64,000 nucleotides of DNA from Stomoxys calcitrans (Eukaryota > Arthropoda > Insecta > Diptera > Muscidae). The stretch covers positions 66,207,727-66,271,726 of the forward strand of contig NC_081556.1 of assembly GCF_963082655.1 (NCBI RefSeq), given 5' to 3'. Of the stretch, positions 7,235 to 56,480 are shown piece by piece. Below the pieces are notes generated by a model. That model saw only the letters and a list, made by a program, of their open reading frames with translations. It ran no database searches and was not told the DNA's origin. The position numbers were made by a program, and so were the translations under genes. Within the stretch, counting starts at the first letter, position 1; each line of letters begins with the position of its first letter.

Positions 7235-7284
7235 CTAAAAAGAATATAGTAATTTGTCATTAAGGTGGCTAAACATTTGTATCG

Positions 7285-8825
7285 CAAATTAGTAGGTTAG
7301 TTTCGAAAGAGGGTGCAGATATTAATGCGCCCGATAACAACATGGGCATACACACGTAAGACAGTAATCGGCTTGATGTACACCCTAAATACTAAAAAGT
7401 AACCTCTAAAAAGAAAATTTAAGTTAGGTATTCCGTGTTACTTGCAAAATCCTTAATTGTTTTCCATACAGGTATGGTATTGTGTCCCCACCCAAGTTCT
7501 GGTGATTGTTCACCGCAAAAGCCGGGCAATGACAAAGGAAATGCTCCAACGCCTTATCATCTTCTCCACTTCTATCACTTGCCGCACCCATTATGCATAA
7601 ATGAGCTCGTAGTCCTGTGCGTCCCGTTATGATACCGAAAGCTATACTGACCTCCTTCTTACTTCCTTTTAGCAATAGGCTCTTCTTCTCACAATCCGTA
7701 TCTCCCCATAAGATTTTCGCCGTCCTAACGACCCTTTCGCTGTTCCACAGTATTACATGCGTATTCGTCGCCCACTCCCTTAACTCGGACTGCGTCGACC
7801 CGAAAGGCTTCAGGTTAACCGTGTTTATTGACGCCAATCGTCTGGCCTTTACTGTAAAATCGTCTGCTTTTTCATTCACCATTACTCCGTTATGGCCCGG
7901 ATTTTGGATTGGATTTTGCCATTCTCAGAGAAGGTGTTAATCTACTTCTTACACTGCAAGACTGTTCGTGACCTTACCGTCCTAGTAGTTATTGCCCTTA
8001 TGGCAATTTTAATGTCGGTAAAGATGTTCACACTCGACGTACTCGCGTTAGCACCACACCACTTCACGCATTCCATGATCGCCCGGATCTCCGCCTGCAG
8101 GACGGTATTGTGGTCTAAAACAGGCAGTCTAAAACAGATCTCAGTGATTGGCCCAGTTTGCCCTCTAGCTTTGATGCAGCTGTACAGCACGATCTCCCAG
8201 ATGGCAATTCCAGCGTTCCGACAAACCAATACTGTGCCTCTGGAAGCACTCCACCTCAAGTGTCATCTCAGGTTTCTGATCGGAAACCTTTTCTATTTCA
8301 TCCGGGTTTCCTAATGTCGCCTCGATCATACCACGCTGGTATGGCCTGCTCCTATCCTCAATTTATTCTCCCATCGGTTGCCTCACATTAGTTTGTATGT
8401 TAATGGGTCGGATATCTAGAATAGTCTCCTTTACCCTAGTGGGCGTAGTCCTCATCGCGCCGCCTATGCCAAGATAACATGTTGTCTAAACCTGTTGTAT
8501 TATCCTTACTTTGCACTATTTTTCCATCAAAGTCCACCAAATAATTGAGGCGTGTGGACTATCCTCGGATTCAAGCCCTAATTCGAACCTACGGTCTGCT
8601 TACATAGTGCCCAACACCTGTGAGCCTTTTCAGTACGCTCGTGAATGTGACACTTCCAATTAAGTTACCCGTCCAAGATCACTCCTAAGTATTTGACCTT
8701 GTCAGACATGCAGACCTTTCTATTGAGGAAACGTGGTGCTTTAAATCGGTCCATCTTTCTCGTGAACAGGCAGATTTCAGTCTTCTCTGGGTTAGCATTG
8801 AGACCCCTGGGTCTAGCCCAGTCAT
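7285..8825 (-). mobile_element. LINE 'B' (I/LOA group), 5'-truncated copy 1
   Basis: The minus strand carries, in transcription order, an RT thumb region (about 8825-8400; GLNANPEKTEICLFTRKMD and KVKYLGVILDG are readable in translation), an RNase H (8259-7942), a cysteine-containing tail (7882-7424) and a 3' UTR ending near 7285 with GGTTAG. The same 3' end is found at 9895-10500 (minus) and, on the plus strand, at 36430-36795. It is the first insertion into the giant intron, only 50 bases upstream of the 7154-7234 exon's acceptor. Its 5' edge abuts the 3' end of LINE 'C', which may have inserted into it. Confidence 0.75.
7424..8259 (-). pseudogene. LINE 'B' RNase H and C-terminal tail
   Basis: Two minus-strand frames. 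The first (8259-7942) has AEIRAIMECVKWCGAN and VNIFTDIKIAIRAI, resembling RNase H blocks with an acidic residue (AEI..I) and S/TD(S/I).(A)AI. The second (7882-7424) carries WGDTDCEKKSLLL and EDDKALEHFLCHCPAFAV, the zinc-knuckle-like tail of RNase H-bearing LINEs. A frame break lies between them at about 7890-7940. In the living element this protein would degrade RNA in the RNA-DNA hybrid. Confidence 0.65.
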
Positions 8826-9665
8826 ATTTGTAATTTGAATTTTAATTTGTAATTTATTTATTTACACCCGCACTACAAGAATAAAAAATTCTTATAATTA
8901 AGGTGCGGGTAATATCTCCAACAATTGTACATATTAAACACTTAAAACTAAGAATCTATAGCTATATAATACATCACAGAGACGTACAGCGAATATGAAC
9001 ATATGCCATTCAGAAACAAGCCTCCGATACATTTTGGGAATGATTCTTTTACCTCTAGTAGATCTTGCGAAATCAATAAATCCAAACAGATATTGTGGTG
9101 CCTGCGTGTAGATCAGTTTATGCAGGAAAGTAAGCGATCTTAGGAACAACAATTGCTGTAAGGAGACGCCATACAGAGATAAACAGTTTTCAGAGATGGA
9201 ATCGCGCCGTCTCAAGCCAAATACATAACGAGTAACGCTATTAAAAAAGGTGTTTAGCTTACGTCTACTTACCGAGTCGCAATTAGCAAACAACTCACAG
9301 CCGTAGAGAATGCCAGGAACAAGATAAGTATTTGCCAAGAGAGATCTAACCCGCAGCGGAGTAACCGACTGAGTGGCACAGAGAGCACGCAATTTTGAAT
9401 ATCCCTGACCAACGACAGAGTCTATATGATTACTCCAAGTCAGAGTGCTGTTAATAACAACGCATGAGGAACGATTTTCAATCTAGAGTCGTGAATGAGT
9501 ATACCGACTTCGCATGAAAAACGAGACAGCCTGTTTCTGATAATCACACACTTGGACTTTACAGGGTTGAGACACAGGCCGTTGGCTTTCGCCCACGTGC
9601 TGACTCTTGACAGATCATGATTAAGCAGATGTATGTTTTCAGCAATCTCATGTCTTCTGCAAGAT
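8826..9665 (-). mobile_element. LINE 'C' (CR1-like), 5'-truncated
   Basis: On the minus strand a 152-residue frame (9392-8934) has LRVRSLLANTYLVPGILYG, CELFANCDSVSRRKLN, VTRYVFGLRRRDSIS and ARSTRGKRIIP, the C-terminal part of an RT lacking RNase H, as in CR1-type LINEs of insects. Just upstream (about 9610-9400) translation gives WAKANGLCLNPVKSKCVI, the block after the YxDD palm, in other frames. The 3' end is near 8826, with ATTCTTATAATT in an AT-rich tail. No complete frame survives. Confidence 0.7.
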
Positions 9666-9689
9666 CATTTCCCTTCTATGCCATGTAAA

Positions 9690-9880
9690 GTTTCTCTCCA
9701 AAGAGGTGTCGCACTGCAGCTCGCTGTTCGGACTCGTCTATTAAAAGGAGGCCTCTTACAATTGAGCCTAAACTTGAATCGGATAGCACTCAATGATATG
9801 TGAGAAGTTTGCCCTTTTCCTTAGTAGAATGTTCATGGGCAAAATTTGCAAGATCCTTTCGGTCCTTCTGCATAGCTGAT
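9690..9880. repeat. Dispersed repeat with TTGAATCGGA..GCACTCA core
   Basis: The block contains CTCTCCAAAGAGGTGTCGCA, AACTTGAATCGGATAGCACT and TGTTCATGGGCAAAATTTGC. A shorter, weaker version (AATCGGACTGCACTCATTGA) is seen at 42350-42420. It is non-coding and I cannot classify it. Confidence 0.4.
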
Positions 9881-9894
9881 ACGGATCCTTACCC

Positions 9895-10500
9895 AGTGGC
9901 GGAATCACATATCGGTCATACACCCAAGCCAGTTATTGACTTGTGCGTTCTAAATACAAAAAGTAACCTCGAAAAAGAAAATTTAAGTCAGGAATTCCAT
10001 GTTACTTAATAGTTATCCATACCACGCCCCTTAATTGGTTTATGTCTGGTATTGTGTCCTCACCCAAGTGCCTGTGTCTACTAGCAGCAAAAGCTGGGCA
10101 ATGACATAGGAAATGCTAAAACGTTTCATCATCTTCCCCACATGCCCTTAGCATGCGATCACTTGCCGTACCGATTTTGCATAAGCGAGCTCGTAGTCCT
10201 ATGTGTCCTGTTGTGATACCGAAAGCTATACTGACCTACTGGTTGCTTGCTTTCATAGACTATTCTTCTCACAATCCGGATCTCCCCATAGGATTTTCAT
10301 TTTCTTACCAACCGTTTGCGCATTCGTAGCCAACGCTTTTTACTCGGACTGCGTCGATCCGAAAGGCTTCGGGTTAACCAAGTTTATTGACGGCAGTCCT
10401 CTGGACTGCCAAATCGTCGGCTTATTCATTCCCCTTACTCTGCTGTGGCCCGGCACCCAAACGATGCGGATCGTAATGGGTGACAAAATGTTATATTCGT
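9895..10500 (-). mobile_element. LINE 'B' 3' end, copy 2
   Basis: The block aligns by eye with 7360-7920, both running through GTAACCTC(T/G)AAAAAGAAAATTTAAG, TGTTACTT and GCCGGGCAATGACA/GCTGGGCAATGACA. It is the RNase H tail and 3' UTR of the same LINE on the same strand, with more indels than copy 1. No frame is intact. Confidence 0.7.
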
Positions 10501-10855
10501 GCATATTGGTATCAAAAAGTGCTAAATAGTACGAAATAGCTTATATTCGCCTACAGCCAGCAGGGACAGCTAGAACTAAGCCGGATTTTAATTTTTTATT
10601 TTTTTTTTGTTTTTGAATGTTACATTTAGGTATTAAACCGTACAAAATGGCACGTTCCTTATGTTTTGAGCTGGTGCTCTGACATTCGGAATATAGTGAC
10701 ACTTTGTCAGTATGTATTGAGTAACTAGAAGATATTTCTGATAATCGTATAATAATTTACTTAAACGAACAACATTGAATTTTTCAAATTTGTAGACTTA
10801 GACGAAGAAACAACGAACATTAATATTGTAATTTTCATAAATGTATTTATTTACA
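10501..10855. other. Gene-free AT-rich spacer
   Basis: AT-rich, with a T-run (TTTTTATTTTTTTTTTG) near 10590-10615. The phrase GGTATTAAACCGTACAAAATGGCACG recalls the GTAC-rich units of the H2 elements, so an old H2 remnant is possible. Nothing else is recognisable. Confidence 0.4.
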
Positions 10856-12180
10856 ACTAGCATCCCGTCGGTCCGCTTCGTTAAGGTATTGCCGTATCCT
10901 AATTTTGAGAGCTTAAGATCGCTCTGTAATGCAAGTACAGTTTTGTATGTCTTAGTTCCCAAATGAACCCGATTCCAAATTTTGAGTGCTCTAGCTCAAT
11001 TCGCAGAGAAAGTACTATTTTGTATGTCTTAGTACCTAAATGTACGACTTTGAAAAAAATCTTTCGATCGCCCAAAACTTGTCGTCAAGGTATAGATGTA
11101 TCCAAATTTTGAGTGTTTTATCTAACTCCGTAAAAAACGTCAATTTTGTACGTTTGAGTAACTAAATGCCCAAATAAAAATATCTTCCAGTCGCCCAATA
11201 TATACTTTAAAGGTACAATTTCCACCACAATTAGTATGTTTTCTTCCACATGTCGTATTTTGGTCAAGACTGTGATAGTGTTTGTCAAAATGCTTTACTC
11301 TAGCTGTTCCCGTTCGCTGTAGGGAGAGATGAGCTCTTTTGTATTATTTTACACTTCCTCGTTGTACCTACATGCCAAATTTCAGACCCCTAGCCCCATC
11401 TGCAAAGAAATTATCAAATGGTACCAATTTTAGAACCAAAATTTTAGAATTTTAAATAGATCATTTAGTCACCCTTCATATGTTTCCTCGTTGTAACTAC
11501 ATGCCAATTTTCAGACCTGTAGCTACATCTATAAAGAAAACACCAAATGGTAACAATTTTGGTAACAAAATGTTCGAATTGTGAATAGATCATTTAGTCA
11601 CCCATCATATATTTTCTAGTTGTACCTACATGCCAAATTTCAGTTTAAAGAATGTACCAAATGGTACCAATTGCTGTACTTTACATAAGTAATCTGATAC
11701 TATTTTTGCAATTTTTCCTTTTCGGGAGATATCTTTTAAGACAAATTTCTTAATTCTAGCTCTATCCATCCGCCCTGCACAAAGTTCTCCCATTTCGTAA
11801 ATTTACTTTTTTTAGTACCTACATGTAGAAATTTCGAAAAGGTCTTCGATTCATTTAATCAAGTTTGTCATGGTGTACCTAAGTTCCTAAATTCAGAGCT
11901 CTAGCTCAATTTATAAAAAAAGTGCCAAATAGTACAAATTGCAGCACTGAACGTTTCATTTCTCCCACATCCGGAACTTCAAAAATTTTTCCACCAAATC
12001 TTATTTCACAATTTCGTATTTTTGTTTCTTTCTTTTTGTATATCACGGAATACCGCCTTATTCCGTGCCTATGATCCAATACCAACATTTGTGCAAGATT
12101 TCATGATTCTACCTGTAGCCGTTTGGGCTGGGCGACGATCATTCAGTCAGTCGCGCTATCCTTTTATATATTTTGGCAAT
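10856..12180 (+). mobile_element. Helitron-like tandem-unit element H2, copy a
   Basis: The element begins ACTAGCATCCCGTCGGTCCG and ends near TATCCTTTTATATATTTTGG. Its interior repeats a unit of about 110-130 bases built on AGAGCTCTAGCTCAAT, AAGAAAGTACCAAATGGTAC, GTACCTAAATGTACGAATTTC and TCGCCCAATATATACT. No coding frame. It has the same general architecture as H1 (CTAGT on one side, TATATAAAA on the other, diverged tandem units between) but no shared unit sequence. Further copies at 31331-33020 (plus) and 25095-25830 (minus). Confidence 0.55.
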
Positions 12181-12344
12181 GGCATAGTAAATAAAAATGA
12201 ATAAAAAACATTTATTTATTTGTTTTTTATTCATTTTTTTATACTATTTAAAAAAGTGTAGAAATCACTTTAAAAAAATTGTTTAATGAGAAATATATAA
12301 AAAAAAATGTCTAAAATTACTTTAAAGAAAAAATAAAACAGAAA

Positions 12345-12470
12345 AAAATTGCCGGCCGCCGGAATCGAACCTGGGTTTGCGGTAGAAATGGAGTCGGATT
12401 GTACATGAGCATTTTTACTCTTGCCGTATTGCATGCACCTACGTCTGCCTGCAAACTGCAATGAAGCGGG
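12345..12470 (-). repeat. tRNA-like fragment with a B-box motif
   Basis: The minus strand reads GGTTCGATTCCGGCGGCC followed by GGCAATTTTTTT, i.e. a perfect RNA polymerase III B-box and a T-run. No convincing A-box or cloverleaf was found upstream and the T-stem pairs poorly, so this is not a working tRNA gene. It could be a tRNA pseudogene or the head of a tRNA-derived SINE. Confidence 0.3.
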
Positions 12471-12480
12471 TATGAAAATA

Positions 12481-12708
12481 TTGGGTTGCCCAAAAAGTAA
12501 TTGCGGATTTTTCATATAGTCGGCGTTGACAAACTTTTTCCACGGCTTGTGACTCTGTAATTGCATTCTTTCTTCTGTCAGTTATCAGCTGTTACTTTTA
12601 GCTTGCTTTAGAAAAAAAGTTTAAAAAAGTATATTTGATTAAAGTTCATTCTAAATTTTATTAAAAATGCATTTACTTTCTTTTAAAAAATCCGCAATTA
12701 CTTTCCAA
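12481..12708. mobile_element. Mariner-type MITE, copy 1
   Basis: The left end is TTGGGTTGCCCAAAAAGTAA after a TA; the right end is a shortened inverse, AAAAATCCGCAATTACTTTCC, ending CCAA before TA. The right inverted repeat has lost the TTTTGGGCAACC part. No frame. The complete version of the same element is at 55139-55374. TA target and inverted ends fit the Tc1/mariner superfamily. Confidence 0.8.
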
Positions 12709-13040
12709 TAATAATTAACACTCGAAAAGGGTCAAATATCTCAAATATAATTGCCTAAATATAAAAAAATGTTTTTTTCTATTTTGGTCATACAAATATC
12801 CCATTTTTCAACTTTAAGAATAGGCCTTATTTAATTGGTGCTGTTGCAGGCCAGTTCAAAACACTGTTTTTGTAGGACTCGTAAATTAACATATTTTGCA
12901 GGCCCTTCTGCAGGCGTATATCGAGCAATGGAAAGTGCATGACTTCGTACCAATGACACACAATGTTTCTTTTGAAATTGTGTTTACATTTGTGTGGAAG
13001 TACTGGCAACTGCCTTTGCATGCACATGCGTATGCATGTA
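12709..13040. other. Gene-free spacer
   Basis: AT-rich left half (12720-12830) and a mixed right half. No repeat match within the window was noticed apart from AT-runs, and no coding frame looks real. Confidence 0.4.
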
Positions 13041-13550
13041 TGTCGCCTCTTTCCGCTACTGGGTACCTCTTAGAAGCATTATTCAGTCATCATCCGTAAG
13101 AGGTTATTTATGGTGGTTACCCATAGAAGTGGCGATAAAATGCCCCTCTGTCGCGTCCCTTGCGTCAGTTTCTACCTTATAGTTATGCCACGAGACCCAT
13201 AGTTATTTCACCTGTTCCTTAGCATATGATTTATCCAGTCTCTAAGGACCCAGTCCACCCGGTTCTGATCTAAGGATTGAATCAGTTTGTTGATCCGCAC
13301 ATTGTCAAAAGCCCCTTCGAAATCAAGGTATACCGCCAATGTGTACGTCTTAGCATCAAAGGATTCTTCTATTATATGCACAAACTCGTGCTTGATGTTA
13401 GTATTTGAGAAGTTTACTGGATGTCCTACTCTTAATCATGGTATTCACAATACGTTCCATGATTTTGAGTGGAAAGGACGTAAGGCCGCTGTCTCTGCTC
13501 TCATTCCCATGTCGTCTACCAGCGTTTAAGTTCGGACATGGGTTTTTGAC
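13040..13550 (-). mobile_element. LINE 'B'-group reverse transcriptase fragment
   Basis: Minus-strand translation gives, in several frames, KSW.VL, HEFVHIIEESFDAKTYTLAV, YLDFEGAFDNVRINKLIQ, DWVLRDWINHMLRNR and then RGILSPLLWVTTINNLL. These are the RT palm block with its catalytic Asp (LDFEGAFDN) and the following (Q/R)GG(V/I)LSPLLW block. The fragment covers a portion missing from the copy at 7285-8825. It is truncated on both sides and frameshifted. Confidence 0.65.
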
Positions 13551-13710
13551 TGAAACTTTTTCATCTTAGCGGAGTCATTAAAGGCCAAAACAGAATCAGC
13601 ACGTTGAGCATTGATTTTGAGTGTCACGTTGTAAAAATGCAACTATGCTCACAAATCCCACAAATGAAACGCGGTAAAAATTAAAAAAAAAAAAAATAAC
13701 TTTGGTACTT

Positions 13711-13845
13711 TAAAGTGAGCGTTATTCGGTGTTGCCACATGTGAAGTAGTATTTTCAGTCGTCAAAGTTAAAAATTGTTTAACTTTGCGAGTTGGTTTTT
13801 TACATTTGTTTGCAGAGTTGCATTTTTCAACGCGACGCTCCGTTG
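13711..13845 (+). repeat. Arm of an inverted repeat flanking LOA copy B
   Basis: The block (GAGCGTTATTCGGTGTTGCCAC-like start, then AGTAGTATTTTCAGTCGTC and TTTGTTTGCAGAG) matches the inverse of 15105-15235 (GCGAGCGTCATTCTGTG, AGTAGTGTTTTTAGTCGT, ATTTGTTTGCAGAT). The two arms enclose LOA copy B and about 1.26 kb in total. They may be the ends of one element that LOA entered, or an inverted pair of the same repeat. Confidence 0.45.
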
Positions 13846-13849
13846 GCAC

Positions 13850-14990
13850 GTTTTGCCTCTCTGAAGATCTTATTGTGTTCCTTGAGCCATGCGTTATACA
13901 CATCCCTAAACTTCCGCTTTTTTACGACATGTTTTGTTATAAAGTCTGGGGATCCTGATATTGCGAATCTCCCCAATCATCCAGGGTTTTTCTTGGGCTG
14001 GGTTTTTCCTTTCTCGAAGAGGGAAACTATCTTCGAAAGACCCCACTTGTACAGTCGTAATCCGGTTGACATTGTCGTCAATGTCTTCTATGCTTGCACA
14101 ATCTATGTTATCTTGCCCAAGTCTTCTTCTGAGAAGTCTTACGACTTTTGTCCAGATGGTTTTGAACTTATTCCCGACGCTGACCGTGCTATTTTAAACC
14201 TAACGTTGCAATGGTCAGAGAATAAGATTTTCATATCGATAAGATTTTCCAAATATATTGTCACATCTTAAACCTCCTCCCTAATCCTATAAAGGTAGCG
14301 GTGTTAGCAATATAAAGTGTTATTAGGTCGTTAATATTCAAGAATTCTGCCAGGGCTTGGCCCCGCTTATTAATGTTGGTACTACCCCACGAAATGTGGT
14401 GAGAGTTCGCATCGCACCCATCGTAACTCATTTCCTGTCTGTTTTACCTTCCTCACCGGCTGTTGCAGCGCTAACGAGGGTAGCGGTGTCGTAGAGTCGA
14501 AAGACAGATAAAGTGATGCCAGGTATGCTTCACCGTCTCCCTGTCTAATGCCTGTTGCGTTCGAAGTTGACAACTCTGGGGAAAATATATAATTTAAAAT
14601 TGTATGACAAATCACGCAGGTCTTCGGCCTTCGGAGTACCAGTGGTAGCATAGAATAATGGGTAGTTGATATGTTCGGTCCAGAAACTTTGTTCCGGGCA
14701 GTCCATGGCTTCTGAATTAAGGCAATATGAACTTGCCCTTGCTGATGTTCTCCATCAGAGCGTGTGGATGACCCCAATCATTGGTCCTTCAGTAAATAGG
14801 CTACTTGAAAGTTGGTGATTGTTCTAACGTCGGCTCCCTGTTCATTAAGGTGCATTGAGTCTCTCAACCCAACTTGAATATTGGACGCCAAGAAAGATAG
14901 ATTGTCGTTTATATTGTGTTCATTTTGGCTGGGCCGAATACAAGTCATCCTCCACCAATGACATATGTATATAAATATAAAATTTCCCAT
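13850..14990 (-). mobile_element. LOA-like LINE, copy B (endonuclease region)
   Basis: On the minus strand the order is: one unit of the ORF1 C-terminal repeat (14990-14778, with HLNEQGADVRTIT), the start of the apurinic-like endonuclease (14777-14382: VHIALIQKPWTARNKVSG, NYIFSPELSTSNAT), the block RKVKQTGNELRW and SPHFVG, then the endonuclease-RT linker in broken frames to about 13850. The E of LIQEPW is K here (LIQKPW), so the catalytic Glu of the endonuclease is lost. Not functional. Confidence 0.75.
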
Positions 14991-15104
14991 AAAAATTAAT
15001 GAATTAATGATACTTCTCTCATATCAATGAAACTACAATACTTGGTAGAGAAGTTTTAACATGGCTGGATTCCTCAACTCTTTTAGCAGTTTTGTGTTCC
15101 CATT

Positions 15105-15235: not shown

Positions 15236-15299
15236 ATTGTCAACGTTGAAAATGTTTTAACTTTTCCGCCTATGTGCGATTTCGCTGGAATTTGTTTCA

Positions 15300-15720: not shown

Positions 15721-15730
15721 GCATTTTTCA

Positions 15731-22785: not shown

Positions 22786-22795
22786 GGACAGTACT

Positions 22796-29122: not shown

Positions 29123-30222
29123 TTGGTAACTGACACAGATAACCTTCTGAGGATATGGAAAGAACATTTTACCCAACTGCTAGTGTCCGACGTTGGCGGC
29201 GAAGAGGATACCGCAGAACCAATCCCTGATGATGGTATAGAATGTTTACCTCCTAGTCAGAATGAGGTCCAAGTAGCTGTGACCCGACTAAAGAACAACA
29301 AGGCAGCAGGATCCGACGAGTTACCCGCTGAACTGATTAAGACCGGAGGCGACACGCTGATAAGGCGTATGCATCATCTTATCTGTGCAAGAAGAACGCA
29401 TACCCGATGATTGGAATCTCAGCATACTATGTCCCGTACATAAAAAAGGAGACAAGACGGAATGTGCCAACTACAGAGGAATAAGTCTCCTCCCCATCGT
29501 ATACAAGATACTCTCGAACATACTGTGTAAAATATTAAAACCTAAAGTCAATGAGATAAATGTGGCTTTAGACCTGGTAAATCTACCCCAGACCAAATAT
29601 TCACACTGCGCCAAATCCTGGAAAAGATCCGAGAAGAAGAAATCAACACCTACCATCTCTTTGCTGACTACAAAGCCGCCTTCGATACTCCTTTACGTTC
29701 AAAGGTATTTCAAGCCATGTGTGAGTTTTTTATCCCTGCAAAAGACTCTGCAGGATGATACTTGCTGATACGCGTTCCTCAGTAAGAATAGGAAAGAATC
29801 TCTCCGAACCATTTAATACCAAACGAGGTTTCAGACAAGGAGACAGCCTATCGTGTGATCTCTTTAATATCCTGCTGGAGAAGATTATACGAGATGCAGA
29901 TGTGAATAGATATGGCACACTAATCACAAGAGAACACATGCTACCCGCCTATGCCGACCACATCGATCTCATAGGTCGGTCACTGGAAGTAGTAACTGCA
30001 GTCTTTGAAAGAATCGAAAGAGAGTCAGCGAAAATGGGTCTGGCAGTTAATGGAGATAGGACGAAATGGATGGTTTCAACTCCCAAAAAGCCTTGCACAA
30101 CCGAGCAGATAAAGAAAATGGAGAAAGTTGGTAACCACAACTTTGAGATAGTCAGTAACTTTATCTACCTCGGCACCGCCGTAACCGAAACGAATGACAC
30201 CAGTTTTGAGATTAAGCAATGA
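29123..30222 (+). pseudogene. RTE-like reverse transcriptase, frameshifted
   Basis: Frame segments carry NNKAAGSDELPAELIKTGG, IPDDWNLSILCPVHKKGDK and TECANYRGISLLPIVYKILS, then in a new frame TKRGFRQGDSLSCDLFNILL and PAYADHIDLIGRSLE. The palm motif is YADH where the minus-strand sister at 39300-39330 has YADD, so the second catalytic Asp is replaced by His. At least three frame changes between 29400 and 29770. Not active. Confidence 0.85.
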
Positions 30223-39038: not shown

Positions 39039-39960
39039 TCATATAACAAAGTAGCATCTGTTTGCCAGCGTTATTCTTTGCTTTATCTCAAAACTGGTTT
39101 CATTCGTTTCGGTTACTGCGGTACCGAGGTAGAAAAAGTTACTGTCTATCTCAACATTGTGGTTCCCAACATTCTCCATTTTCTTTATTTGATCGGTTGT
39201 ACAGGACGTTTTGGGAGTTGAATCCATACATTTCATCTTATCTCCATTTACTGCCAGACTCATTTTCACTGACTCTTTTTCGATTCTTTCAAAGGCTGAC
39301 CCACCTATGATGTCGATGTCGTCGGCATAGGCGAGTAGCATGTGTTCTCTTGTGACTACTGCGCCATACCCATTCACATCTGCATCTCGTATAATCTTCT
39401 TCAGCAGGATATTAAAGAGATCACACGATGGGCTGTCTCCTTGTCTGAAATCTCGTTTGGTATTAAATGGTTCCGAGAGATTCTTTCCTATTCTTATTGA
39501 GGAACACGTATCAGCAAGTGTAATCTTGCAAATTCTTATTAATTTTGCTGGGAAACCAAACTCACACATGGCTTGAAATACCTTTGAACGTAAAGGGGTA
39601 TCAAAACCGGCTTTGTAGTCAACCAAGAGATGGTAGGTGTTCAATTATCTCATTGACTTTAGGTTTTAATCTTTCACACAGCATATTTTGTATGCGATGC
39701 GGTGGAGACTTAGTCCTCTGCAGTTGGCACATTCCGTCTTGTCTCCTTTCTTGTGTATGGGTGTGCTGAGATTCCAATCATCGGATATGGGTTCTTCTAC
39801 ACAAATTGGCCAGACAAGCTTATGCATACGCCTTATCAGCGTGTCGCCTCCGGTCTTAAATAGTTCAGCGGGTAACCCGTCGACTCCTGCTGCCTTGTTG
39901 TTCTTTAGTCGGGTCGCAGCTACTTGGACCTCATTCTGATTAGGAGGTAAACATATTATA
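39039..39960 (-). pseudogene. RTE-like reverse transcriptase, minus strand copy
   Basis: The 201-residue frame 39644-39039 reads NTYHLLVDYKAGFDTPLRSK (first catalytic Asp in VDYKAGFDT), NTKRDFRQGDSPSCDLFNIL, HMLLAYADDIDIIGGSAFER and VGNHNVEIDSNFFYLGTAVT. Upstream (39960-39650) the fingers (NN.AA(G/E)VDGLPAELFKTGGD-type wording) are readable in other frames. Both catalytic blocks survive, but the protein is split by frame changes near 39645. Confidence 0.85.
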
Positions 39961-47217: not shown

Positions 47218-49010
47218 CATCTGACTAGCTGTCAGAAAGCTTATTTATAACTTACTTACTAAAAGATGCATTACGGCAGGCTTGGGATCTGTGGATCTAA
47301 AAAGATGGATTAGCAAAAGAACACTTCAAAGAGATGTACTGTCTCCGGTACTTTGGAATATAGCTATTAACAATATTTTATTGTCCCTGGCAGAAAATGT
47401 GTAAAAATGATCGCGATGATGACGTGGCAATTGCGGTTAGGGGAGAGTTTCCCAGCACTCTAAGAGATATATTTCAGGTAGCTTTACGTGGAACAGCGAT
47501 TTGGGCTACCGAAAGGGGTCTAGGTATTAATCCGTGCAAGACAGAAGTACTTATTTTCAGCAGGAGATACAAATTGCCTACAGTGGCACCCGTCTCCTTG
47601 GGAGGAGAGAATGTTCCAGAAAGCTCAAAATACCTGGGTATTTTGCTGGACAGAAAATTGAATTTCAAATCCAACATTTTGGAAAGGACAAGAAATGCAA
47701 CTCCTGCCCTATACACCTGCAAGAGAGAAATTGGCAAAAGCTGGGTTTTAGACCTACATGCTACATGATGTTGTGGTCTGGTGGAAGGCGCTTCAAAGGT
47801 CCACCTGCTGCTCAATACTTATCCGGATCCAAATAATGGCTTGTTTGTGCATCACAGCCGCTTTGAGGACGACATCATCTGTTGCCCTTATATTAATCGT
47901 TCATCTAGTGCCTCTTGACATTGTGACGAGACAAATTGTTGTGACCACTGCTGTGAGGCTAAGGGAGCTTTCATGTTGCGGCTATGGACACTGTGTTATT
48001 CTTGATACAATTTCCGATGTTCCAGGAAGTGATTAAAAGTACTGTACTGTACCGCTTTTTGATAAAAAGTACTGTACCACAATTCCCGATAGAACCGATT
48101 GGAACTATGATATCCTTGGCAATAGAAATTATATAGACTTCTATACGGATGGTTTCAAACTAAAGGACCACGTGGCCTTTGGGGTGTACTCTAAAGATCT
48201 TGAACTGGTCCTATCGAAAAGATTACTCGACCACTGCAGTGTGTATCAAGCGGAGATACCTGCAATTAAGGAAGTGGTGGAATGGCTAAGATATAATATC
48301 ATAACGACGATTGGCATACATATCTTCTCAGACCGCCAGGCAACCATTTAAGCCCTGGAGGGGCTGTCTCAGATCTCCTAACGAGATGGCTGAACAGCTC
48401 AAAATTCACTTGTTTTGGGTGCCGGACCACAGAGATATCCCTAAGAATTGTAAAGCGGACGAGCTTGCGAGACTAGGTATTACCTTACACATTCAAGGGA
48501 AACTGGAATCTGTGGGTAGGCCTCTAGCGACATGTACGCTAAGTTTTCAGGACCAGACCCGAAGGACAACGAATGATAGATGGTTACAAAGAGGAGGTTG
48601 TGAGCATTCCAAAACTATGTGGCCTAATCTAGACTTGAAGAGGTCTACCGCTTTGCTGTCACTGGCTAGAACAGACGTCTCAGTCATTGTGTCCGTCATG
48701 ATGGTTGCAAGCAACGACTTTTGCAAAAGCTGTGAGGACATCGAAGAAGAACAGACTATAGAACACATTCTGTGTGTGTGTCCCGCACTGGCAGTCTGAA
48801 GGAGTTCCACTTTATGTACTAATTTCTTTGAGGACCTGTCAGATTTTTCGGATGTGAACATTCGCAAGTTGTTGGGTTTTTTTTAAAGCGATCTGTATGG
48901 TTCAGCGGTAGGAACTAAAAGGTATCTTCCTTTTTCTGTTTCTGTGATATCACAAAGAACGAAAATGTCTAAGTGAGTCTGATGGTAGACTGCGACCTAA
49001 ACCTAAACCC
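47218..49010 (+). mobile_element. LOA-like LINE, copy I (3' half)
   Basis: Plus strand from the middle of RT (KDALRQAWDL wording) through the thumb (ERGLGINPCKTEVLIFSRRY, DRKLNFKSNILERTRNATPA), RNase H (DFYTDGFKLKD at about 48135, HCSVYQAEIPAIKEVVEWLR at 48230), the tail (48600-48890) and a 3' UTR that ends GACTGCGACCTAAACC near 49010. Broken by several frameshifts. See copy H for the joint interpretation. Confidence 0.8.
48050..48890 (+). pseudogene. LOA RNase H and tail, copy I
   Basis: Frames give DFYTDGFKLKDHVAFGVYSK (RNase H first Asp), YQAEIPAIKEVVEWL (Glu), IFSDRQATI-like SDRQAT (second Asp), then VPDHRDIPKNCKADELARLG (third Asp in ADELA) and the zinc-like tail C.SCEDIEEEQTIEHILCVCPA. 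All RNase H acidic positions are visible, in two frames. This is the best RNase H copy of the family in the window. Confidence 0.8.
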
Positions 49011-49134
49011 GACCCCACATGTATTCCAAGGAAATTTCATCTAGAATCGATTAAAAAAAATTCAAAGCGATCCGACCAATAGTTTAGTTTCTATTGTACT
49101 AAAATTTCAAGAAATCGTTAATAGTACATTTTGA

Positions 49135-50089
49135 CTTGTTTTCTGGAACAAGTAGGAATCTTTAACATATTCCTCTCGCTCATCACCGAAGACATGTCGT
49201 ACTTCATATGACGCGAATCAAATCGGAAAGGCAGGGAAGAGGACGCTGCATGGAATTCGCAAATCCAACTAACACAAAGCAATGGAAACCAATCACGTTG
49301 ATGCTTTTTTGGCTATTATTTTATATGATGGACTGACAAAATCGAATAGTGAACCTCTTGAAGAGGTGTGGGGCCTCTTGAAGAGGTGTGGACGCTGTCC
49401 AATATATAAAACTGCGTTATCATTAGATCTTATGAAGTGCATAAAACAATGCCTTCGTTTCGACAACGCGACAGCAGCGACTAATCAACAGTAAAACTGC
49501 GGCTATTGGTGATATTTGGCAAATGTTGCTGTCTAACTTGGCAACAGCTTACACTCCGCAAGTTGCAGTGACGGTTGATGAGCAGTTATTTCCATACAGA
49601 GGCCCCACCCGCTTCACACAATACATTCCATCGAAGCGCGCCAAGTACGGCATAAAGATATGGTGGTTGTGCGACTCAAAATCATTTTATCCTGTCAAAG
49701 GAATGATTTACTCTGATAAATTGACTGACCAGGAACGAGAGGTGAATCAAGGGCAGAAAGTTGTACTTTCGGAGAGACATTTGAATACAGGTCGCACAAT
49801 TTATGCCGAAAATTTTTCACAACTTTGGATTTGGCGCGTACTTTGATCAGGAAGAAAAACGCATATATTGTTACTGTGCGCTCGAATAAGACATGTGTGC
49901 CTCGGAAAACATGGAAACTGAAAAGAAAAGGCCGTTTGCTATTTTGGATTACAACGCCAACTAATCTGGCGTTGATACAATAGACCAGATGCTTGGCACA
50001 TATACATGCAAGCGCTCAACAAACCGCTGGCCACTGGCTATGTTTTATACGAAGGTTGCCTTTTATACTTCGGGATTGACATTTTTGAG
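49135..50089 (+). pseudogene. piggyBac-type transposase relic
   Basis: Frames in order: NIFLSLITEDMSYFI (49160), AFLAIILYDGLTKSNSEPLE (49300), CIKQCLRFDNATA (49440), YTPQVAVTVDEQLFPYRGPT and RFTQYIPSKRAKYGIKIWWL (49550-49670, with the conserved Asp of VDEQL), EVNQGQKVVLSERHLN and TIYAENFSQLWIW (49740-49840), then RPFAILDYNAN.SGVDTIDQML and KRSTNRWPLAMF (49930-50045). The DEQL...PF(R/Y)G and D.MDQM blocks identify the DDE_Tnp_1_7/piggyBac family. At least four frame breaks and internal loss before DYNAN. A copy of TTGAAGAGGTGTGG is duplicated at 49358-49389. No TTAA ends were confirmed. Confidence 0.85.
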
Positions 50090-50727
50090 GTTATATTTTT
50101 GGCCATAAAGCCCCATCAAGGACCAGTGTTTATCGATGGTATGGTGAATTCAACCGAGGTCGTAATGGACGCCATGACCAGGACGAATTTCGTGAAGATC
50201 GTTTAAAATCAGTTGTTATTCCAGATTGTCATGTGACCTATCGTGAGATTAGTGGGACCAGGATACATTCAATATTGCATGAACATTTGACCGTCAACAA
50301 ATTTGTTCGAGTTGGATCCCACACAATTAGTCAATCGCTGAAAAAGGGTCGTGTCGATTGGTCGAAAGAAATGCTCCAAAAATACGAAACAACTTGATTG
50401 ATGAGTCATCTCAAAACATCGATTTGATGAGCCATCTGCCGTGTAGTCCTGGCTTGGCACCAAATAACTTCTTTTTATTCCCGTACGTAAAAAACTAAAT
50501 GACCGGTCAAGGTTTATCGGCACCTTAAGACGCAGTTGATGCGTTCAGATTGCATGCTTTGGAGATACCTCAATCAGAGTGCCAAAGTTGCTTCGACAAT
50601 TGGTTAATACGCATGCAAAAGTGTATAGATCTGAATGGGGAATATTCTGAAAAACAATAAAGCTATTTTCGATGATTAATATTTGTTTTTGTTCTCCAAT
50701 CCCGAAATATAAAAGGCAAGCCTCCTA
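50090..50727 (+). pseudogene. mariner transposase relic
   Basis: Reads VYRWYGEFNRGRNG, CHVTYREISGT, IHSILHEHLTVNKF (50230-50300), KGRVDWSKEMLQKYETT, then after a large internal deletion CLAPNNFFLFPYVK-like (50450-50490), QRFIGT, EIPQSECQSCFDNWLIRMQK and CIDLNGEYSEKQ. HVTYREI..S.GIS...IHSILHEHL and the (D/G)LAPN(D/N)FFLFP block are mariner signatures; the catalytic D34D Asp region has lost its first half and its last Asp is not in place. The 3' end ATTTGTTTTTGTTCTCCAAT and CCCGAAATAT..GCCTCCTA fits a mariner inverted end. Confidence 0.8.
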
Positions 50728-51011
50728 ATAAGGTGGACATTGCTGCATGTATTTCATACAACGAGAAGGAGCCAATAAAAAGAAGTGAGAGACGACGGTC
50801 ATTGATACTATAGGCGTGCAGTGGTGTTACTGCAAGTATCAGCAAAACAGACATACCTTAAACTGGTGGTATAAATAAGAGAAATATTTAACATTTATGG
50901 CAGGGCTCTGTGATACCACAAATATTATTTTATTACTAGTGGTGAAACAAATAGAACTGTTTGTACTTGTGCTTTAAAACGAAATAAAAAAAATACTTGG
51001 AAAATTTATAA
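50728..51011. other. Gene-free spacer
   Basis: No recognised repeat or coding frame. Confidence 0.4.
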
Positions 51012-53097
51012 TCTTATATATAAAAATCAATTTGTGCTTGTTTGTAGGTTTGTTTGTGTGTTCCTTTTAGACTCAGAAACGGCTAAACCGATTTTCTTGA
51101 AATTTTCACAGATGGTGCATAATGATCCCGTGGTGAAAATAGGGTACATTTTTTGATATCTGAAGGGGGGGCGGACCCTCCCCCTTACTCTAATTTTCAG
51201 AAACGCCAGATCTCGGAGATGGGTGGTGCGATTTAAGCGAAATTTTGTTTGCTCTCTTATAGTACCCTAAAAATAAAAATTTGGTATCCAAATTTCGGAT
51301 GGGGTACTTGGGGGGCCGCCCCACCCTAAAACCTACCAAATATATATTTAGACCAATCACGACAATATGGGACTCAAATGAAAGGTATTTAGGATAAGAA
51401 AACGTATCTGATATCCATTTGTCGAACCAAGTGCTAGGGGGACCACCCCAACCCCCAAAACACCCCTAAATCGGACATATTTACCGACCATGGCAATATG
51501 GGACTCAAATGAAAGGTATTTGCGAGTAGATTACGAATCTGATATCCATATGTGGGATCACGTTTCTGGGGGTCCACCCCTTCGCCAAATCACCCCCCAA
51601 ACAGGACTTATTTACTGACCATGGGAATATGGGGCTTAAATAAAAGGTATTTGAGTGTAGAATTAGAATCTGATACCCAAATATGGGACCAATTATTTGG
51701 GGGGCCGCCTCTCCCCAAAAACATCCCCTAAAAGGGACAAATTTACGACCTTAGCCATATAGAGCTCAAATGAAAGGTCTTTTGGAGTAAAGCACGAATC
51801 TGATATCAATATTTGGGAAAAGTGTCTATGGGCCAACCCACCCCCACAACAATACCCAAATAGGAAGTATATGCTGACTTTTGGAATATGAGGCTCAAAT
51901 AAAAGGGTTTGTAGAGTGGAATACGCCCATCCCCCAAAACACCGCCATAGCCGGTCAGGTTTGCCGACTATGGAAATATGGGGCTCAAATTAAAGGTATT
52001 TGGGAGTAGACCACGTATCTGATATCAATATTAGGGACCAACTGTCTAGAGGACGTCCCACCACCATAACAACCCCCAAATAGGACGAATTTGCTCACCA
52101 CGACTATTTGGGTCGTAAAGAGAGTGAAACTAAATATTTATAGCTTTTAGGGCCAATACCCCAAACTGGACATATTTGCTGACTATTGCAATAAGGAGTT
52201 TAAATGAGATTATAAAACGAATTTGATATCCAATTTTGAGGCCAATGGCAATATGAGGTTCAAATAAATGATATATAGATATATGAGAATAGATAGAGTA
52301 GTCAATAAAATGATATATAGATATATGAGAATAGATAGAATAGAGAATAGCACGTTAAATGAAAAGTATTGAGAGCAAGAATTGATACCCACTTTCGGGA
52401 CCAATTTTTGGGGGTTAACCCCTTTCCCAAAATACCCCACAGGCAGCATTTTTTAGTGACCATCACAAAATGGGGCTCAAATAAAGGTATTTGGGAGTAG
52501 AATACGACTTTCATATCCAAATTTATATTTGTAGCATGGTACATCCAAATTTGGGACCATGAATTTAGGGCATCACCCCTTCCCCAAACGCCCCGCAAAG
52601 GGTAAACATTTTTCGACCATGCCAATATGTGGTATTTAATATTAGAAAACTAATTTGATAACCTATTTTTGGCCATATGTTTGGGGGACGCCTCATCGTG
52701 TGAACTTCCCTAAACCAATGGCAATATGGGGTTTAAATAAATGGTTTTTGGAAGAAGAGCACGATGTTGATATTTTTCAGGGCCAAGTGTCTGGGGGACA
52801 ACCTCTCCCCCGAAAACACCACTAAATCAGACATCATGAGAATATCGGGCTGAAATAAAGTATTTTAAGAATGGAGTACGCCTTATATCCAAACTTTAAT
52901 TCGTAGACCAATAAGGATCATATGGTATTCAGATAAAGGTACTTATATTGCTAAACAATTAGTCAAGCGATATACTATATTCGTAGCATGGTATTTCACT
53001 AAAAGCTCTTCAATTGTCGAAAATACATATTTCAAGGAAACTTTTGTTCCATATAAAGTAAAAGAAGGCACAGCGCAGCGGGCCCGGGTCAGCTAGT
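51012..53097 (-). mobile_element. Helitron-like tandem-unit element H1, complete-looking copy b
   Basis: About 2.09 kb. The left end is ATCTTATATATAAAAATCAA then TTTGTGCTTGTTTGTAGG and GACTCAGAAACGGCTAAACC; the right end is GCGGGCCCGGGTCAGCTAGT. The interior has about ten units with GCAATATGGG(A/G)CTCAAATGAAAGG, GAATCTGATATCCA and GGGGG(A/C)C(C/G)(A/T)CCCC. 52270-52350 duplicates AATGATATATAGATATATGAG. All frames across it are shadows. CTAGT at one end, with AACC outside, resembles a Helitron 3' end (CTRR) but the hairpin is not clear. Confidence 0.6.
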
Positions 53098-53124
53098 AAC
53101 CTTATGAAAACTATTTTACCCGGG

Positions 53125-53460
53125 TATCTTGGTGGTTTTGTGGGTAGTTGTTGTTGTAGCACATGTCTGCTGGTGAGCAAGTTCGCTCTGGTCCAAAGCA
53201 GCCATCGCCGCCTGAACAGGGTGGCCATTGGTTATTTAAAGGCGCCAATAACTTGTCTTGTCATTAGGAGCATCATAGGCACTCAGTATTTGTGCAAGAG
53301 TCAATGACGCCCGGCCTCTCACTGATACTCTCAGTGCAGGAGCATTCCACTCTCCGCAACCTGTGGGAACGCCCGGTAGCTAGCAGCTAAGCTTCTCGTG
53401 ACAGCAATAAACACCACACAGATCGGACCTTAATGTTCCAGCCAGTTTTGTGGGTAAAGC
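53125..53460 (-). mobile_element. SINE-like element, RTE-headed, minus strand
   Basis: In inverse order: ACTGGCTGGAACATTAAGGT, TGTGTGGTGTTTATTGCTGTC, ACGAGAAGCTTAGCTGCTAG, AAATAACCAATGGCCACCCT, CGGCGATGGCTGCTTTGGAC and the tail GTGCTACAACAACAACTACC. The head matches the 5' region of the RTE-like LINE (27540-27790) and the tail is a CAA repeat not found there. 53461-53762 after it has no gene. Confidence 0.6.
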
Positions 53461-53762
53461 CTCGGGATTTAATTGGAATTTTGAACATTTTTAAATATGT
53501 GATTTCTTGCTTGACACTCAAAAATTAATTAACTTGTTTCTTCTTGCTCTGATTGGTCGAAGCAGATTTGCCGAAAATTTTAAATGTCAGGGCGAATCGA
53601 ATTTTCTTCGCCCTGTTTACAAATTTTGACATACCAAGTTCCCAAAAAAGATGCTTTGTTGTAGCAATTCGCCGATGCGGCAGAGTAGAAAATTTTTCAG
53701 ATATTCGACTTGGTATTCGATTAAAAAAGAACAAATGAAAATTAAAAAAAAATATATTAATA

Positions 53763-54757
53763 AACAAGTGAAAGCTAAGTTGCTAAGTTCGGTCTGGCCG
53801 AATATATACCCTCCACCGTTGATCGCATTTGTCGAGTTCTTTTCCGGGCATCTCTTCTTAGACAAAAAAAAAAAATTAAAAGAAAAGATTTGCTTTGCTG
53901 TTAGAGCGATATCAAGATATGGTCCGATTCGGACCACAATTAAATTATATGTTGAGACCTGTGTAAAATGTCAGCCAATTCGAATAAGAATTGCACCCTT
54001 TAGCGGCTCAAGAAATAAAATAGAGAGATCGATTTATATGGGAGCTGTATCAGGCAATAGACAGTTTCAGACCATAATAAATACCTATGTTGATGGTCAT
54101 GAGATGATCTGTCGAACAAAATTTCAAGCAAATCGGATAATAATTGCGACCTCTAGAGGTTCAAGAAGTCAAGATGCCAGATCGGTTATGAACCGATTTG
54201 AACCTTATTTGGCACAGTTGTTAGATATCATAACAAAATACTTCGTGCAAGATTTCATTCCAATCGGATTAGAATTGCGCCCTCAAAAGGCTCAAGAAGT
54301 CAAGACATAAGATCGGTGTGAATGGCAGCTATATCAGATTATAGACCGATTTGAACCATACTTGGCACAGTTGTTGAATATTATAACAAAACACGTCGTG
54401 CAAAATTCGATTTCAATCGGATAAGAATTGCGCCCTCTAGAGACCCAAGAAGTCAAGATCCAATATCGGATTATATGGCAGCTATATCAAAACATTTACG
54501 GATATAGCCCATTTACAATCCCAATTGACCTACACTAATAAGAAGTATTTGTGCAAAATTTCAAGCGGCTAGCTTTACTTCTTCGAAAGTTAGCGTGCTT
54601 TCGACAGACAGACGGACGGACATGGCTAGATCGACATAAAATGTCAAGACGATTAAGAATATATTTACCTTATGGGGTCTCAGACGAATATTTCGAGTAG
54701 TTACAAACAGAATGACGAAATTAGTCTACCCCTATCCTATGGTGAAGGGTATAAAAA
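53763..54757 (+). repeat. S-family repeat, near-complete copy
   Basis: Starts CAAGTGAAAGCTAAGTTGCTAAGTTCGGTCTGGCC in pieces (CTAAGTTCGGTCTGGCCGAA, TATATACCCTCCACC), ends GACAGACGGACGGACATGGC, TTATGGGGTCTCAGACGAAT, CCTATCCTATGGTGAAGGGT and ATAAAAA. The interior repeats blocks of about 150 bases: AGCTATATCAGATTATAGACC, TTGAACCATACTTGGCACAG, TTGTTGAATATTATAACAAA, ATTTCAATCGGATAAGAATT and GCGCCCTCTAGAGAC. The outer ends TATACCCTCCACC and GGTG(A/G)AGGGTATA are inverse of each other. No ORF; mobilising machinery unknown. Confidence 0.7.
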
Positions 54758-54879
54758 GATTTTAAGATTGGAAAAAAATTTTTTTTTGAACCCGATAAAA
54801 AACAGACCCGTAAAAAACGGTTTATTAAAAAGCCATTAAAAAATATATACCATATATCGATATATCAGCATGCCTATGT
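54758..54879. other. Short A/T-rich link
   Basis: Contains AAAAAACAGACCCGTAAAAAACGG and ATATATCGATATATC. No feature. Confidence 0.3.
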
Positions 54880-55090
54880 CAAGGCATAAATCACCAATCC
54901 TATGGTTGACCACCATAAATGATCTATTACGGATGCCACTGAGGAGGGATTTGAACCAGTCTGCTATGCAGACGATGTTATAAAACTTCTAAGAGCTATG
55001 CAGAAGGGCCGAAAGGGTCTTGCATATGGCATATGACTGGGCTAGACCCAGAGGTCTCAATTTTAACCCAGAGAAGACTGAAATATGCCT
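54880..55090 (+). mobile_element. LINE 'B' reverse transcriptase palm fragment
   Basis: Translation (two frames) gives SPILWLTTINDLLRMPL, GFEPVCYADDVIKLL (catalytic YADD), WARPRGLNFNPEKTEICLF. It joins the segment missing between the fragments at 13040 and 8400, so together they show the LINE 'B' RT order. Inverse orientation to copy 1. Confidence 0.7.
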
Positions 55091-55138
55091 GTTTTTTATA
55101 TAAAAAAAAGATATGACCGCCACCATTCAAGTAAACTA

Positions 55139-55374
55139 TTGGGTTGCCCAAAAAGTAATTGCGGATTTTTCATATAGTCGGCGTTGACAAATTTTTTCAC
55201 AGCTTGTGACTCTGTAATTGCATTCTTTCTTCTGTCAGTTATCAGATGTTACTATTAGTTTGCTTTAGAAAAAAAGTGTAAAAAAGTATATTTGAATAAA
55301 GTTCATTCTAAGTTTTATTAAAAATGCATTTACTTTCTTTTAAAAAATCCGCAATTACTTTTTGGGCAACCCAA
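55139..55374. mobile_element. Mariner-type MITE, complete copy
   Basis: 236 bases: TTGGGTTGCCCAAAAAGTAA, TTGCGGATTTTT at the left and AAAAATCCGCAATTAC, TTTTTGGGCAACCCAA at the right, perfect inverse over about 32 bases, with TA on both sides (55137-55138, 55375-55376). The interior has GCATTCTTTCTTCTGTCAGT and no frame. Same family as 12481 and 24489. Confidence 0.88.
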
Positions 55375-55375
55375 T

Positions 55376-56246
55376 ATATATATTCTTGATCGTCGCGACA
55401 TTTTATATCGATGAAGCCATGTCCGTGCGTCCGTCTGTCTGTCGAAAGCACGCTAACTTCCGAAGGGGTAAAGCTAGCCGCTAGAAATTTTGCACAAATA
55501 CTTCTTATTAATGTAGGTCGGTTGGGATTGTAAATGGGCCATATCGGTCCATGTTTTGATATAGCTGCCATATAAACCGATATTGGGCTTGACTTCTTGA
55601 GCCTCTAGAGTGCGTAATTCCTATCCGATTGGAATTAAATTTAGCACGACGTGTTTTATTATATTATCCAACAACTGTGCCAAGTGTGGTTCAAATCGTT
55701 CAATAACCTGATATAGCTGCCATATAAACCGATCTTGGGTCTTGACTTCTTGAGCCTCTAGAGTGTGCAATTCCATTTTAATGAAATTTTGCATGTAGTA
55801 TTTTGTTATTATATCCAACAACTGTGCCAAGTTTGGGTTAAATCGGTTCATAACCTGATATAGCTGCCATATAAGCCGATCTGGGATATTGAAATCTTGA
55901 GTCTTTATAGGTCGCAATTATTATCCGATTCGCCTGAAATTTTATACGACGGATCCTCTCATGACCATCAACATACGTGTTTATTATGGTCTGAATCGAG
56001 CCCCCAAAGGGCGCAATTCTTATTCGAATTGGCTGACATTTTACACAGGTCTCCCAACATATAATTTAATTGTGGTCCAAACCGGACCATATCTTGACAT
56101 CGCTCTAATAGCAGAGCAAATCTTTTCTTATATCCTTTTTTTTTGCCTAAGAAGAGATGCCGGGAAAAAAACTCGACAAATTCGATCCATGGTGGAGGGT
56201 ATATAAGATTCGGCCCGGTCGAACTTAGCACGCTTTTACTTGTTTT
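55376..56246 (-). repeat. S-family repeat, near-complete, inverse copy
   Basis: Inverse of 53763-54757: GATCGTCGCGACATTTTATA, CCGTGCGTCCGTCTGTCTGTC, TGTAGGTCGGTTGGGATTGTA, three blocks with CTGATATAGCTGCCATATAA and CGATCT(T/G)GG, then GGTGGAGGGTATATAAGATTC and AGCACGCTTTTACTTGTTTT. Pairs with the forward copy over almost 0.9 kb; ends 234 bases before the Elk S6 exon donor. Confidence 0.7.
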
Positions 56247-56480
56247 TTACTTAAATCTTCATTTAATCCCAGTAAACATTGGTTCACCTGCTATTTTTGG
56301 TTCTCATTTCAGGTTGTTTTCCGCTAAAAAAGCTAGAATTAAGGACCCTTGTAGCCGAGTTGGTAACCTGCTCGGGTTATTAGTATGGGCTAATGCACTC
56401 AATTTCCACCAGAGAATTTTTCTATGTGAGTCTGATTTTAGACAGCCATTATAACATTTCCTACAATAGCTGATAATTAC

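What the first reader, a model, noticed from the sequence alone, without database searches (positions are those of the whole stretch)
7235..56480. Elk potassium channel gene carries a ~49 kb transposon-filled intron inside its C-linker
The S6 exon (56481-56599) and the C-linker exon (7154-7234) are on the minus strand, join codon to codon, and are neighbours in all KCNH proteins. All coordinates, phases and splice sites are visible. The space between is 49,246 bases, nearly all mobile elements of at least ten families on both strands. Splitting the gate/C-linker of an ion channel by such a distance is a strong test of long-intron splicing in flies.
Basis: partly seen in the sequence, partly recalled or inferred. 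Interest (0 to 1): 0.8.

Follow-up and report, generated by a model that had tools for sequence, protein, structure and literature searches.

The report
Fly Elk channel gene, repeat-swollen introns
A potassium-channel gene of a large-genome fly has a 49-kilobase intron rich in repeated DNA, but it is only the longest of five such long introns in the stretch examined, so it is mostly ordinary genome inflation.

Summary
Exons 56599-56481 (S6) and 7234-7154 (C-linker) lie on the minus strand with GT/AG borders, join at phase 0 (ALHQ|MPKEL) and are 49,246 bp apart. The gene is Elk type: 89.7% identical over 320 aa to a Haematobia irritans eag-like K+ channel, against 47% to a KCNH2 and 40% to a KCNH1 protein. 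With 100 kb more on each side, eight exons run from S4 to the stop codon: 789 residues, open, over 176,574 bp, with introns of 38.1, 41.2, 49.2, 0.058, 0.65, 25.0 and 20.0 kb. So the 49-kb intron is the largest of five long introns in one gene of a 1.07-Gb genome, not a singular split of the gate. No hidden exon and no second near-identical copy were found. 71% of the intron is repeated within 264 kb; "nearly all" and "ten families" were not shown. No recursive-splice motif better than chance was found in the five long introns, by a rough score; in D. melanogaster 63-70% of introns over 40 kb have such sites (PMC6110457). That is a modest testable lead. Low interest.

The parts
56481..56599 (-). 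Elk exon C: end of S6 and start of C-linker (LMHAVVFGNVTAII...FTALHQ), 119 nt, enters at phase 1, leaves at phase 0; its donor GTAATT is the weakest of the seven donors scored
7235..56480 (-). Intron C-D, 49,246 bp, GT-AG; 71% has another copy within 264 kb; no KCNH-like exon found inside; no ratchet motif better than chance by a rough score
7154..7234 (-). Elk exon D: C-linker (MPKELKQRIEDYFQTSWSLNHGIDINE), 81 nt
7096..7153 (-). Intron D-E, 58 bp, GT-AG
7000..7095 (-). Elk exon E: C-linker (TLREFPEELRGDISMHLHREILQLPIFEGASQ), 96 nt
6353..6999 (-). Intron E-F, 647 bp, GT-AG
6199..6352 (-). Elk exon F: part of the cyclic-nucleotide-binding homology domain, 154 nt
1..6198 (-). In-window part of intron F-G (25,009 bp in all); contains a reverse-transcriptase ORF at 2653-3261 (-)
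56600..64000 (-). In-window part of intron B-C (41,212 bp in all); contains a DDE_1 transposase-type ORF at 59241-60044 (-)
29725..30222 (+). Reverse-transcriptase fragment (RVT_1) inside intron C-D
   Evidence: PF00078, E 3.5e-8
39039..39644 (-). Reverse-transcriptase fragment (RVT_1) inside intron C-D
   Evidence: PF00078, E 1.4e-7
49445..49846 (+). Transposase fragment (DDE_Tnp_1_7, which Pfam describes as Transposase IS4; that this is the piggyBac type is recalled) inside intron C-D
   Evidence: PF13843, E 1e-16

Best explanation
This is the Elk-type (eag-like potassium channel, KCNH4/8 type) gene of a fly, probably a muscid, with a genome of about 1.07 Gb. Most of its introns have been inflated by repeated elements, at least some of them transposons; the S6-to-C-linker intron is the longest of those seen. 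It is an ordinary GT-AG intron, and the mature mRNA encodes an ordinary channel. Shown: exon coordinates, phases, open frame to the stop, no other near-identical match in the genome search, repeat content. Inferred: that the junction is used, that the insertions are neutral passengers, and that removal takes one step.
For: Eight colinear minus-strand exons give one 789-residue open frame ending in a stop. The 320-aa part is 89.7% identical to the Haematobia irritans eag-like K+ channel and 89.1% to that of Cochliomyia hominivorax, without gaps. The C-linker piece matches zebrafish Elk-type 3ukn at E 2.4e-32, KCNH2 at 3.6e-24 and KCNH1 at 3.5e-20 (that 3ukn is the zebrafish Elk channel is recalled). 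The HQ|MP junction aligns without a gap in 9 of 10 homologues. 71% of the intron is repeated in the local 264 kb, and introns A-B, B-C and F-G 60%, 55% and 67% (G-H not measured). Of 13 matches in the genome search, the 4 with 59-98% identity are at this locus and the 9 others are 24-51% (only the best candidates are scored there).
Against: No transcript evidence was available. The donor of the 49-kb intron is the weakest of the seven scored (GTAATT, 1.01; four of the others 5.39, two 5.53). For the whole 320-aa piece the best solved-structure hit is KCNH2 (4.1e-91), while 3ukn (5.4e-64) covers only residues 141-289. The PAS and S1-S3 exons were not found in the DNA held.
Confidence: 0.92

Rival explanations
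1. The intron is removed stepwise by recursive splicing at ratchet points (AG|GT sites inside the intron), as most D. melanogaster introns over 40 kb are reported to be.
For: 63% of D. melanogaster introns over 40 kb have a high-confidence recursive site and 7% more a medium-confidence one, and the authors think the true share higher (PMC6110457, passages).
Against: No YAG|GTRAGT with at least 7 of 12 pyrimidines upstream on either strand of introns A-B, B-C, C-D and F-G (about 0 to 0.3 expected by chance). The best AG|GT site of intron C-D scores 4.9; 27 of 50 Markov sequences have an equal or better best site, and the antisense strand has one of 6.0. It lies at 47717, inside an open frame in a repeat group. 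In the other four long introns 19 to 50 of 50 random sequences equal or beat the best site. Limits of this test: weights set by hand, no known ratchet point scored as a positive control, and several real acceptors of this gene score low (exon E -2.4, A 0.9, B 1.3).
Confidence: 0.15
2. Assembly artefact: unrelated repeat-rich sequence was wrongly placed between two neighbouring exons.
For: Repeats make mis-joins possible, and I could not see reads. A doubling of eag-like exons at a ~348 kb offset elsewhere shows that the assembly may hold duplicated stretches.
Against: No N in 264 kb. All eight exons found are in order on one strand. No other near-identical match to exons C-F among the 13 listed. 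Four further introns of 20-41 kb would each need their own error.
Confidence: 0.04
3. An unseen alternative exon, or a transcription start or end, inside the 49 kb splits the gene into two products.
For: Public gene models of relatives break in this part: the Glossina model P0034 runs past ALHQ into non-channel sequence, and the Lucilia model P0016 garbles the S6 exon.
Against: No KCNH-like exon in the intron at E<1. The frame is continuous at the junction, and the models of Haematobia irritans, Cochliomyia hominivorax, Anastrepha obliqua and Drosophila erecta join the two segments. The broken models are more simply prediction failures (inference).
Confidence: 0.05

Closest known systems
Elk / KCNH8 proteins of other flies (Haematobia irritans, Cochliomyia hominivorax, Anastrepha obliqua, Drosophila erecta)
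   Same: Same protein: 89.7%, 89.1%, 83.5% and 81.2% identity over the 320-aa core. Same exon C end inferred from one Glossina gene model (ALHQ then read-through starting with V; P0034).
   Different: Intron lengths in those genes were not measured here.
Very long introns of D. melanogaster (>40 kb)
   Same: Size class (two of the five long introns here exceed 40 kb).
   Different: Those usually have recursive splice sites (PMC6110457, passages); none better than chance was found here.
Gigantic introns of the Drosophila genes kl-3 and kl-5 (Y-linked: recalled)
   Same: Repeat-driven intron growth in a fly gene.
   Different: Those are megabase-sized and contain satellite DNA (PMC6508621, title and start of abstract); here tens of kb of dispersed repeats, the longest tandem array in the window being 456 bp.
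Long introns of the migratory locust
   Same: [quoted passage not shown] PMC8011201, passages).
   Different: Another order; a genome-wide mean, not one gene.

Membership tests
Elk subfamily of KCNH channels | K+ selectivity filter SVGFGN with S5-pore-S6 | tested here: met
   Exon B encodes LTSVGFGNVSANT; Ion_trans PF00520 E 7e-18
Elk subfamily of KCNH channels | C-linker and cyclic-nucleotide-binding homology domain | tested here: met
   cNMP_binding PF00027 E 6.5e-7; C-linker hit to 3ukn E 2.4e-32
Elk subfamily of KCNH channels | Closer to Elk (KCNH3/4/8) than to Erg or Eag | tested here: met
   One KCNH8 and one KCNH4 protein 63%, one KCNH2 47%, one KCNH1 40%; fly eag-like/KCNH8 proteins about 80-90%. 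By identity; no tree built
Elk subfamily of KCNH channels | N-terminal PAS (eag) domain and S1-S3 | tested here: inconclusive
   tblastn of four fly Elk proteins (E<0.01) finds nothing for residues before 360-369 in the 264 kb, so these exons would lie at least 27.7 kb upstream of exon A; the genome search for them did not complete
Spliceosomal GT-AG intron | GT...AG ends and frame kept across the junction | tested here: met
   Seven of seven introns GT-AG; frame open to the stop
Spliceosomal GT-AG intron | Junction seen in RNA | not testable with these tools
   No transcript data held
Recursively spliced intron | Ratchet point: strong 3' splice site directly followed by a 5' splice site | tested here: not met
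   0 strict motifs in four long introns; none of five better than chance by a hand-weighted score without positive control
Gigantic satellite intron (kl-3/kl-5 type) | Megabase size with satellite arrays | tested here: not met
   49 kb; 26 tandem-repeat rows in the window, the longest 456 bp

The most novel reading that the evidence does not exclude
In large-genome flies of this kind, repeat inflation has produced introns over 40 kb without ratchet points, so the splicing machinery removes them in one step, unlike the recursive route reported for most D. melanogaster introns of that size. Elk, with five long introns (two over 40 kb) and a weak donor on the longest, would be a test gene for this.
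Probability: 0.35. Interest if true: 0.4.

Novelty: new member of a known kind. Interest (0 to 1): 0.18.

Why it matters
By itself it is an ordinary case of intron growth with genome size. Its use is practical: two public gene models of related flies (Lucilia, Glossina) break at the exons next to these introns, so channel genes of such flies may be mis-annotated. The lack of a detectable ratchet motif gives a concrete test of whether long fly introns need recursive splicing.

Tried and rejected
Looked for ratchet points with a strict pattern (four introns) and a weighted score (five introns; intron G-H entered 17 bases short): none above chance. Looked for a hidden KCNH exon in the 49 kb: none at E<1. 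Rfam at gathering threshold and tRNA scan on the window: 0 and 0. Pfam on 20 ORFs, 18 of them in the intron: 5 had a hit, 3 of them in the intron. Seven literature searches: no listed title or start of abstract speaks of this gene's introns; I claim nothing further about print. Considered pseudogene: rejected for the part seen, since the frame is open to the stop. Considered a doubled Elk: no support. One search translated the S6 exon in the wrong frame and means nothing.

Not done: intron lengths in other flies were not measured; by their descriptions the DNA collections hold prokaryotes, viruses, phages, plasmids and metagenomes. The N-terminal exons were not located. No genome-wide intron-length distribution was made; the spacings come from four clusters (37 of the 85 matches) chosen by eye. 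No TE library was available, so repeats could not be named.
Full report
Check of the observation. They join at phase 0 as ...DLKDFTALHQ|MPKELKQRIEDYFQ... and lie 49,246 bp apart. The window is G000:C5:66207727-66271726 of a 1,070,917,216-base genome in 297 contigs.

Gene identity. The spliced C-linker piece matches 3ukn (a KCNH-like chain; zebrafish Elk by recall) at E 2.4e-32, KCNH2 at 3.6e-24 and KCNH1 at 3.5e-20. For the longer 320-aa piece the best solved structure is KCNH2 (4.1e-91); 3ukn (5.4e-64) covers only residues 141-289. Of the 120 proteins listed (615 found) I aligned 10: identity is 77% and 77% to two proteins of unnamed source, 72% and 77% to the proteins of Oryctes and Callosobruchus, 84% to the Lucilia cuprina model P0016 that a source labels eag, 63% to a KCNH8 and a KCNH4 protein, 50% to a Helobdella protein, 47% to a KCNH2 and 40% to a KCNH1 protein. 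Against 239 proteins from both searches the best matches are the eag-like K+ channel of Haematobia irritans (89.7%, no gap) and that of Cochliomyia hominivorax (89.1%, no gap); Anastrepha obliqua has 83.5% and Drosophila about 80-82% among the 25 rows printed (only 120 of 6361 hits of the second search were listed). The species was not identified; probably a muscid (inference).

The whole neighbourhood. I fetched 100 kb on each side; the 264 kb has no N. Exons in window coordinates, with 0 and negative numbers for bases before position 1: A 136246-136042 (S4-S5), B 97991-97812 (pore), C 56599-56481, D 7234-7154, E 7095-7000, F 6352-6199, G -18811 to -18935, H -38918 to -40327 with the stop codon. 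Joined, they give 2,370 nt, 789 residues and one terminal stop. This protein is 66.5% identical to the Haematobia protein over a 790-column alignment; the C-terminal tail is less conserved than the core. Introns: 38,050; 41,212; 49,246; 58; 647; 25,009; 19,982 bp, all GT-AG. The stretch spans 176,574 bp, of which 1.3% is coding. Exons for the residues before 360-369 (PAS domain, S1-S3) were not found up to 27.7 kb upstream of exon A. The 49-kb intron is thus one of five introns of 20-49 kb in the part seen; if the N-terminal exons exist in place, a further intron of at least 27.7 kb lies upstream.

No missing exon, no second copy found. Two fly Elk proteins find nothing in the 49 kb at E<1. 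In the alignment the junction is ungapped in 9 of 10 homologues; the tenth, P0016, skips the S4-S5 exon and has a garbled S6 exon. The Glossina palpalis gambiensis model P0034 carries exons A to C, with ten other residues in place of the one at the B-C join, and then runs on after ALHQ into sequence that is not channel, starting with V as a GT donor would give. Both look like gene-prediction failures at these introns (inference). Of 13 matches in this genome, 4 are at this locus (59-98% identity) and 9 elsewhere (24-51%). An Erg-type exon on C5 (157878891-157879088) starts with IPNPLRQRLEEYF directly after an AG, which suggests, weakly, that the intron position is old and shared with Erg.

Repeats. 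71.1% of the intron has at least one other copy within the 264 kb at E<=1e-10 and >=50 bp, against 60%, 55% and 67% in introns A-B, B-C and F-G (G-H not measured). The best local copy is >=90% identical for 17% of the intron and >=80% for 55%, so the copies are probably of mixed age. A greedy grouping of matches of >=100 bp gives 44 groups covering 67% of the intron; these are not TE families. Pfam names mobile-element domains in 3 of the 18 intron ORFs tested, of 27 of >=120 aa overlapping the intron. So "transposon-filled" is fair in part; "nearly all" and "at least ten families" remain unproved.

Splicing. In D. melanogaster 63% of introns over 40 kb have a high-confidence recursive site and 7% more a medium-confidence one (PMC6110457, passages seen). 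Here a strict ratchet motif occurs 0 times on either strand of four long introns, where about 0 to 0.3 would be expected by chance. In a weighted scan of all AG|GT sites in five long introns the best sense site scores 2.2, 2.8, 4.9, 2.3 and 3.9 in A-B, B-C, C-D, F-G and G-H; 50, 47, 27, 44 and 19 of 50 Markov sequences do as well or better, and the best antisense sites score 5.5, 4.3, 6.0, 3.0 and 1.9. The weights were set by hand, there was no positive control, and real acceptors of this gene score from -2.4 to 6.5, so this lowers but does not exclude recursive splicing. Only two of the five introns exceed 40 kb. The donor of exon C (GTAATT) scores 1.01; of the other six donors four score 5.39 (A, B, F, G) and two 5.53 (D, E).

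How ordinary it is. Four clusters of same-strand Ion_trans exons elsewhere in this genome have largest gaps of 92.9, 61.9, 57.9 and 24.4 kb (37 of 85 matches, clusters chosen by eye; gaps are upper limits for introns, and one cluster may hold more than one gene). Genome sizes of 1.0-1.2 Gb are quoted for three muscids (PMC5940159, passages), and another large insect genome, the locust, has a mean intron of 11.12 kb (PMC8011201, passages). Megabase introns are known in the Drosophila genes kl-3 and kl-5 (PMC6508621, start of abstract in the listing). A 49-kb repeat-rich intron in a channel gene of a 1.07-Gb fly is therefore not surprising.

Verdict. Observation confirmed; interpretation as a special split of the gate not upheld. 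Most likely an ordinary Elk gene, intact in the part seen, with neutral repeat inflation of most of its introns. The lead worth keeping is the lack of a detectable ratchet motif in fly introns of this size.

Noticed in passing
G000:C4:10315524-10335309 and C4:10663528-10684111 (L035, L034): Two sets of eag-like channel exons at a nearly constant offset of about 348 kb (348,004; 348,029; 348,814), with the same translated C-linker/CNBD exon as far as printed: a large tandem duplication or an uncollapsed haplotype in the assembly.
   Followed up: partly
Proteins P0016 (Lucilia cuprina) and P0034 (Glossina palpalis gambiensis): Public gene models of two flies are broken at the exons that flank the long introns here; P0016 is named eag by its source although it matches Elk-type proteins.
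   Followed up: partly
window 59241-60044 (-): DDE_1 transposase-type ORF of 267 aa (PF03184, E 5.9e-30) in the intron upstream of the S6 exon, the longest open frame in the window listing.
   Followed up: no
window 56475-56480 (-): The longest intron has the weakest 5' splice site of the seven scored (GTAATT against GTAAGT or GTGAGT).
   Followed up: no
G000:C5:157878891-157879088 (L032): Erg-type C-linker exon begins at the position that corresponds to the Elk exon D start, which suggests a shared old intron position.
   Followed up: partly
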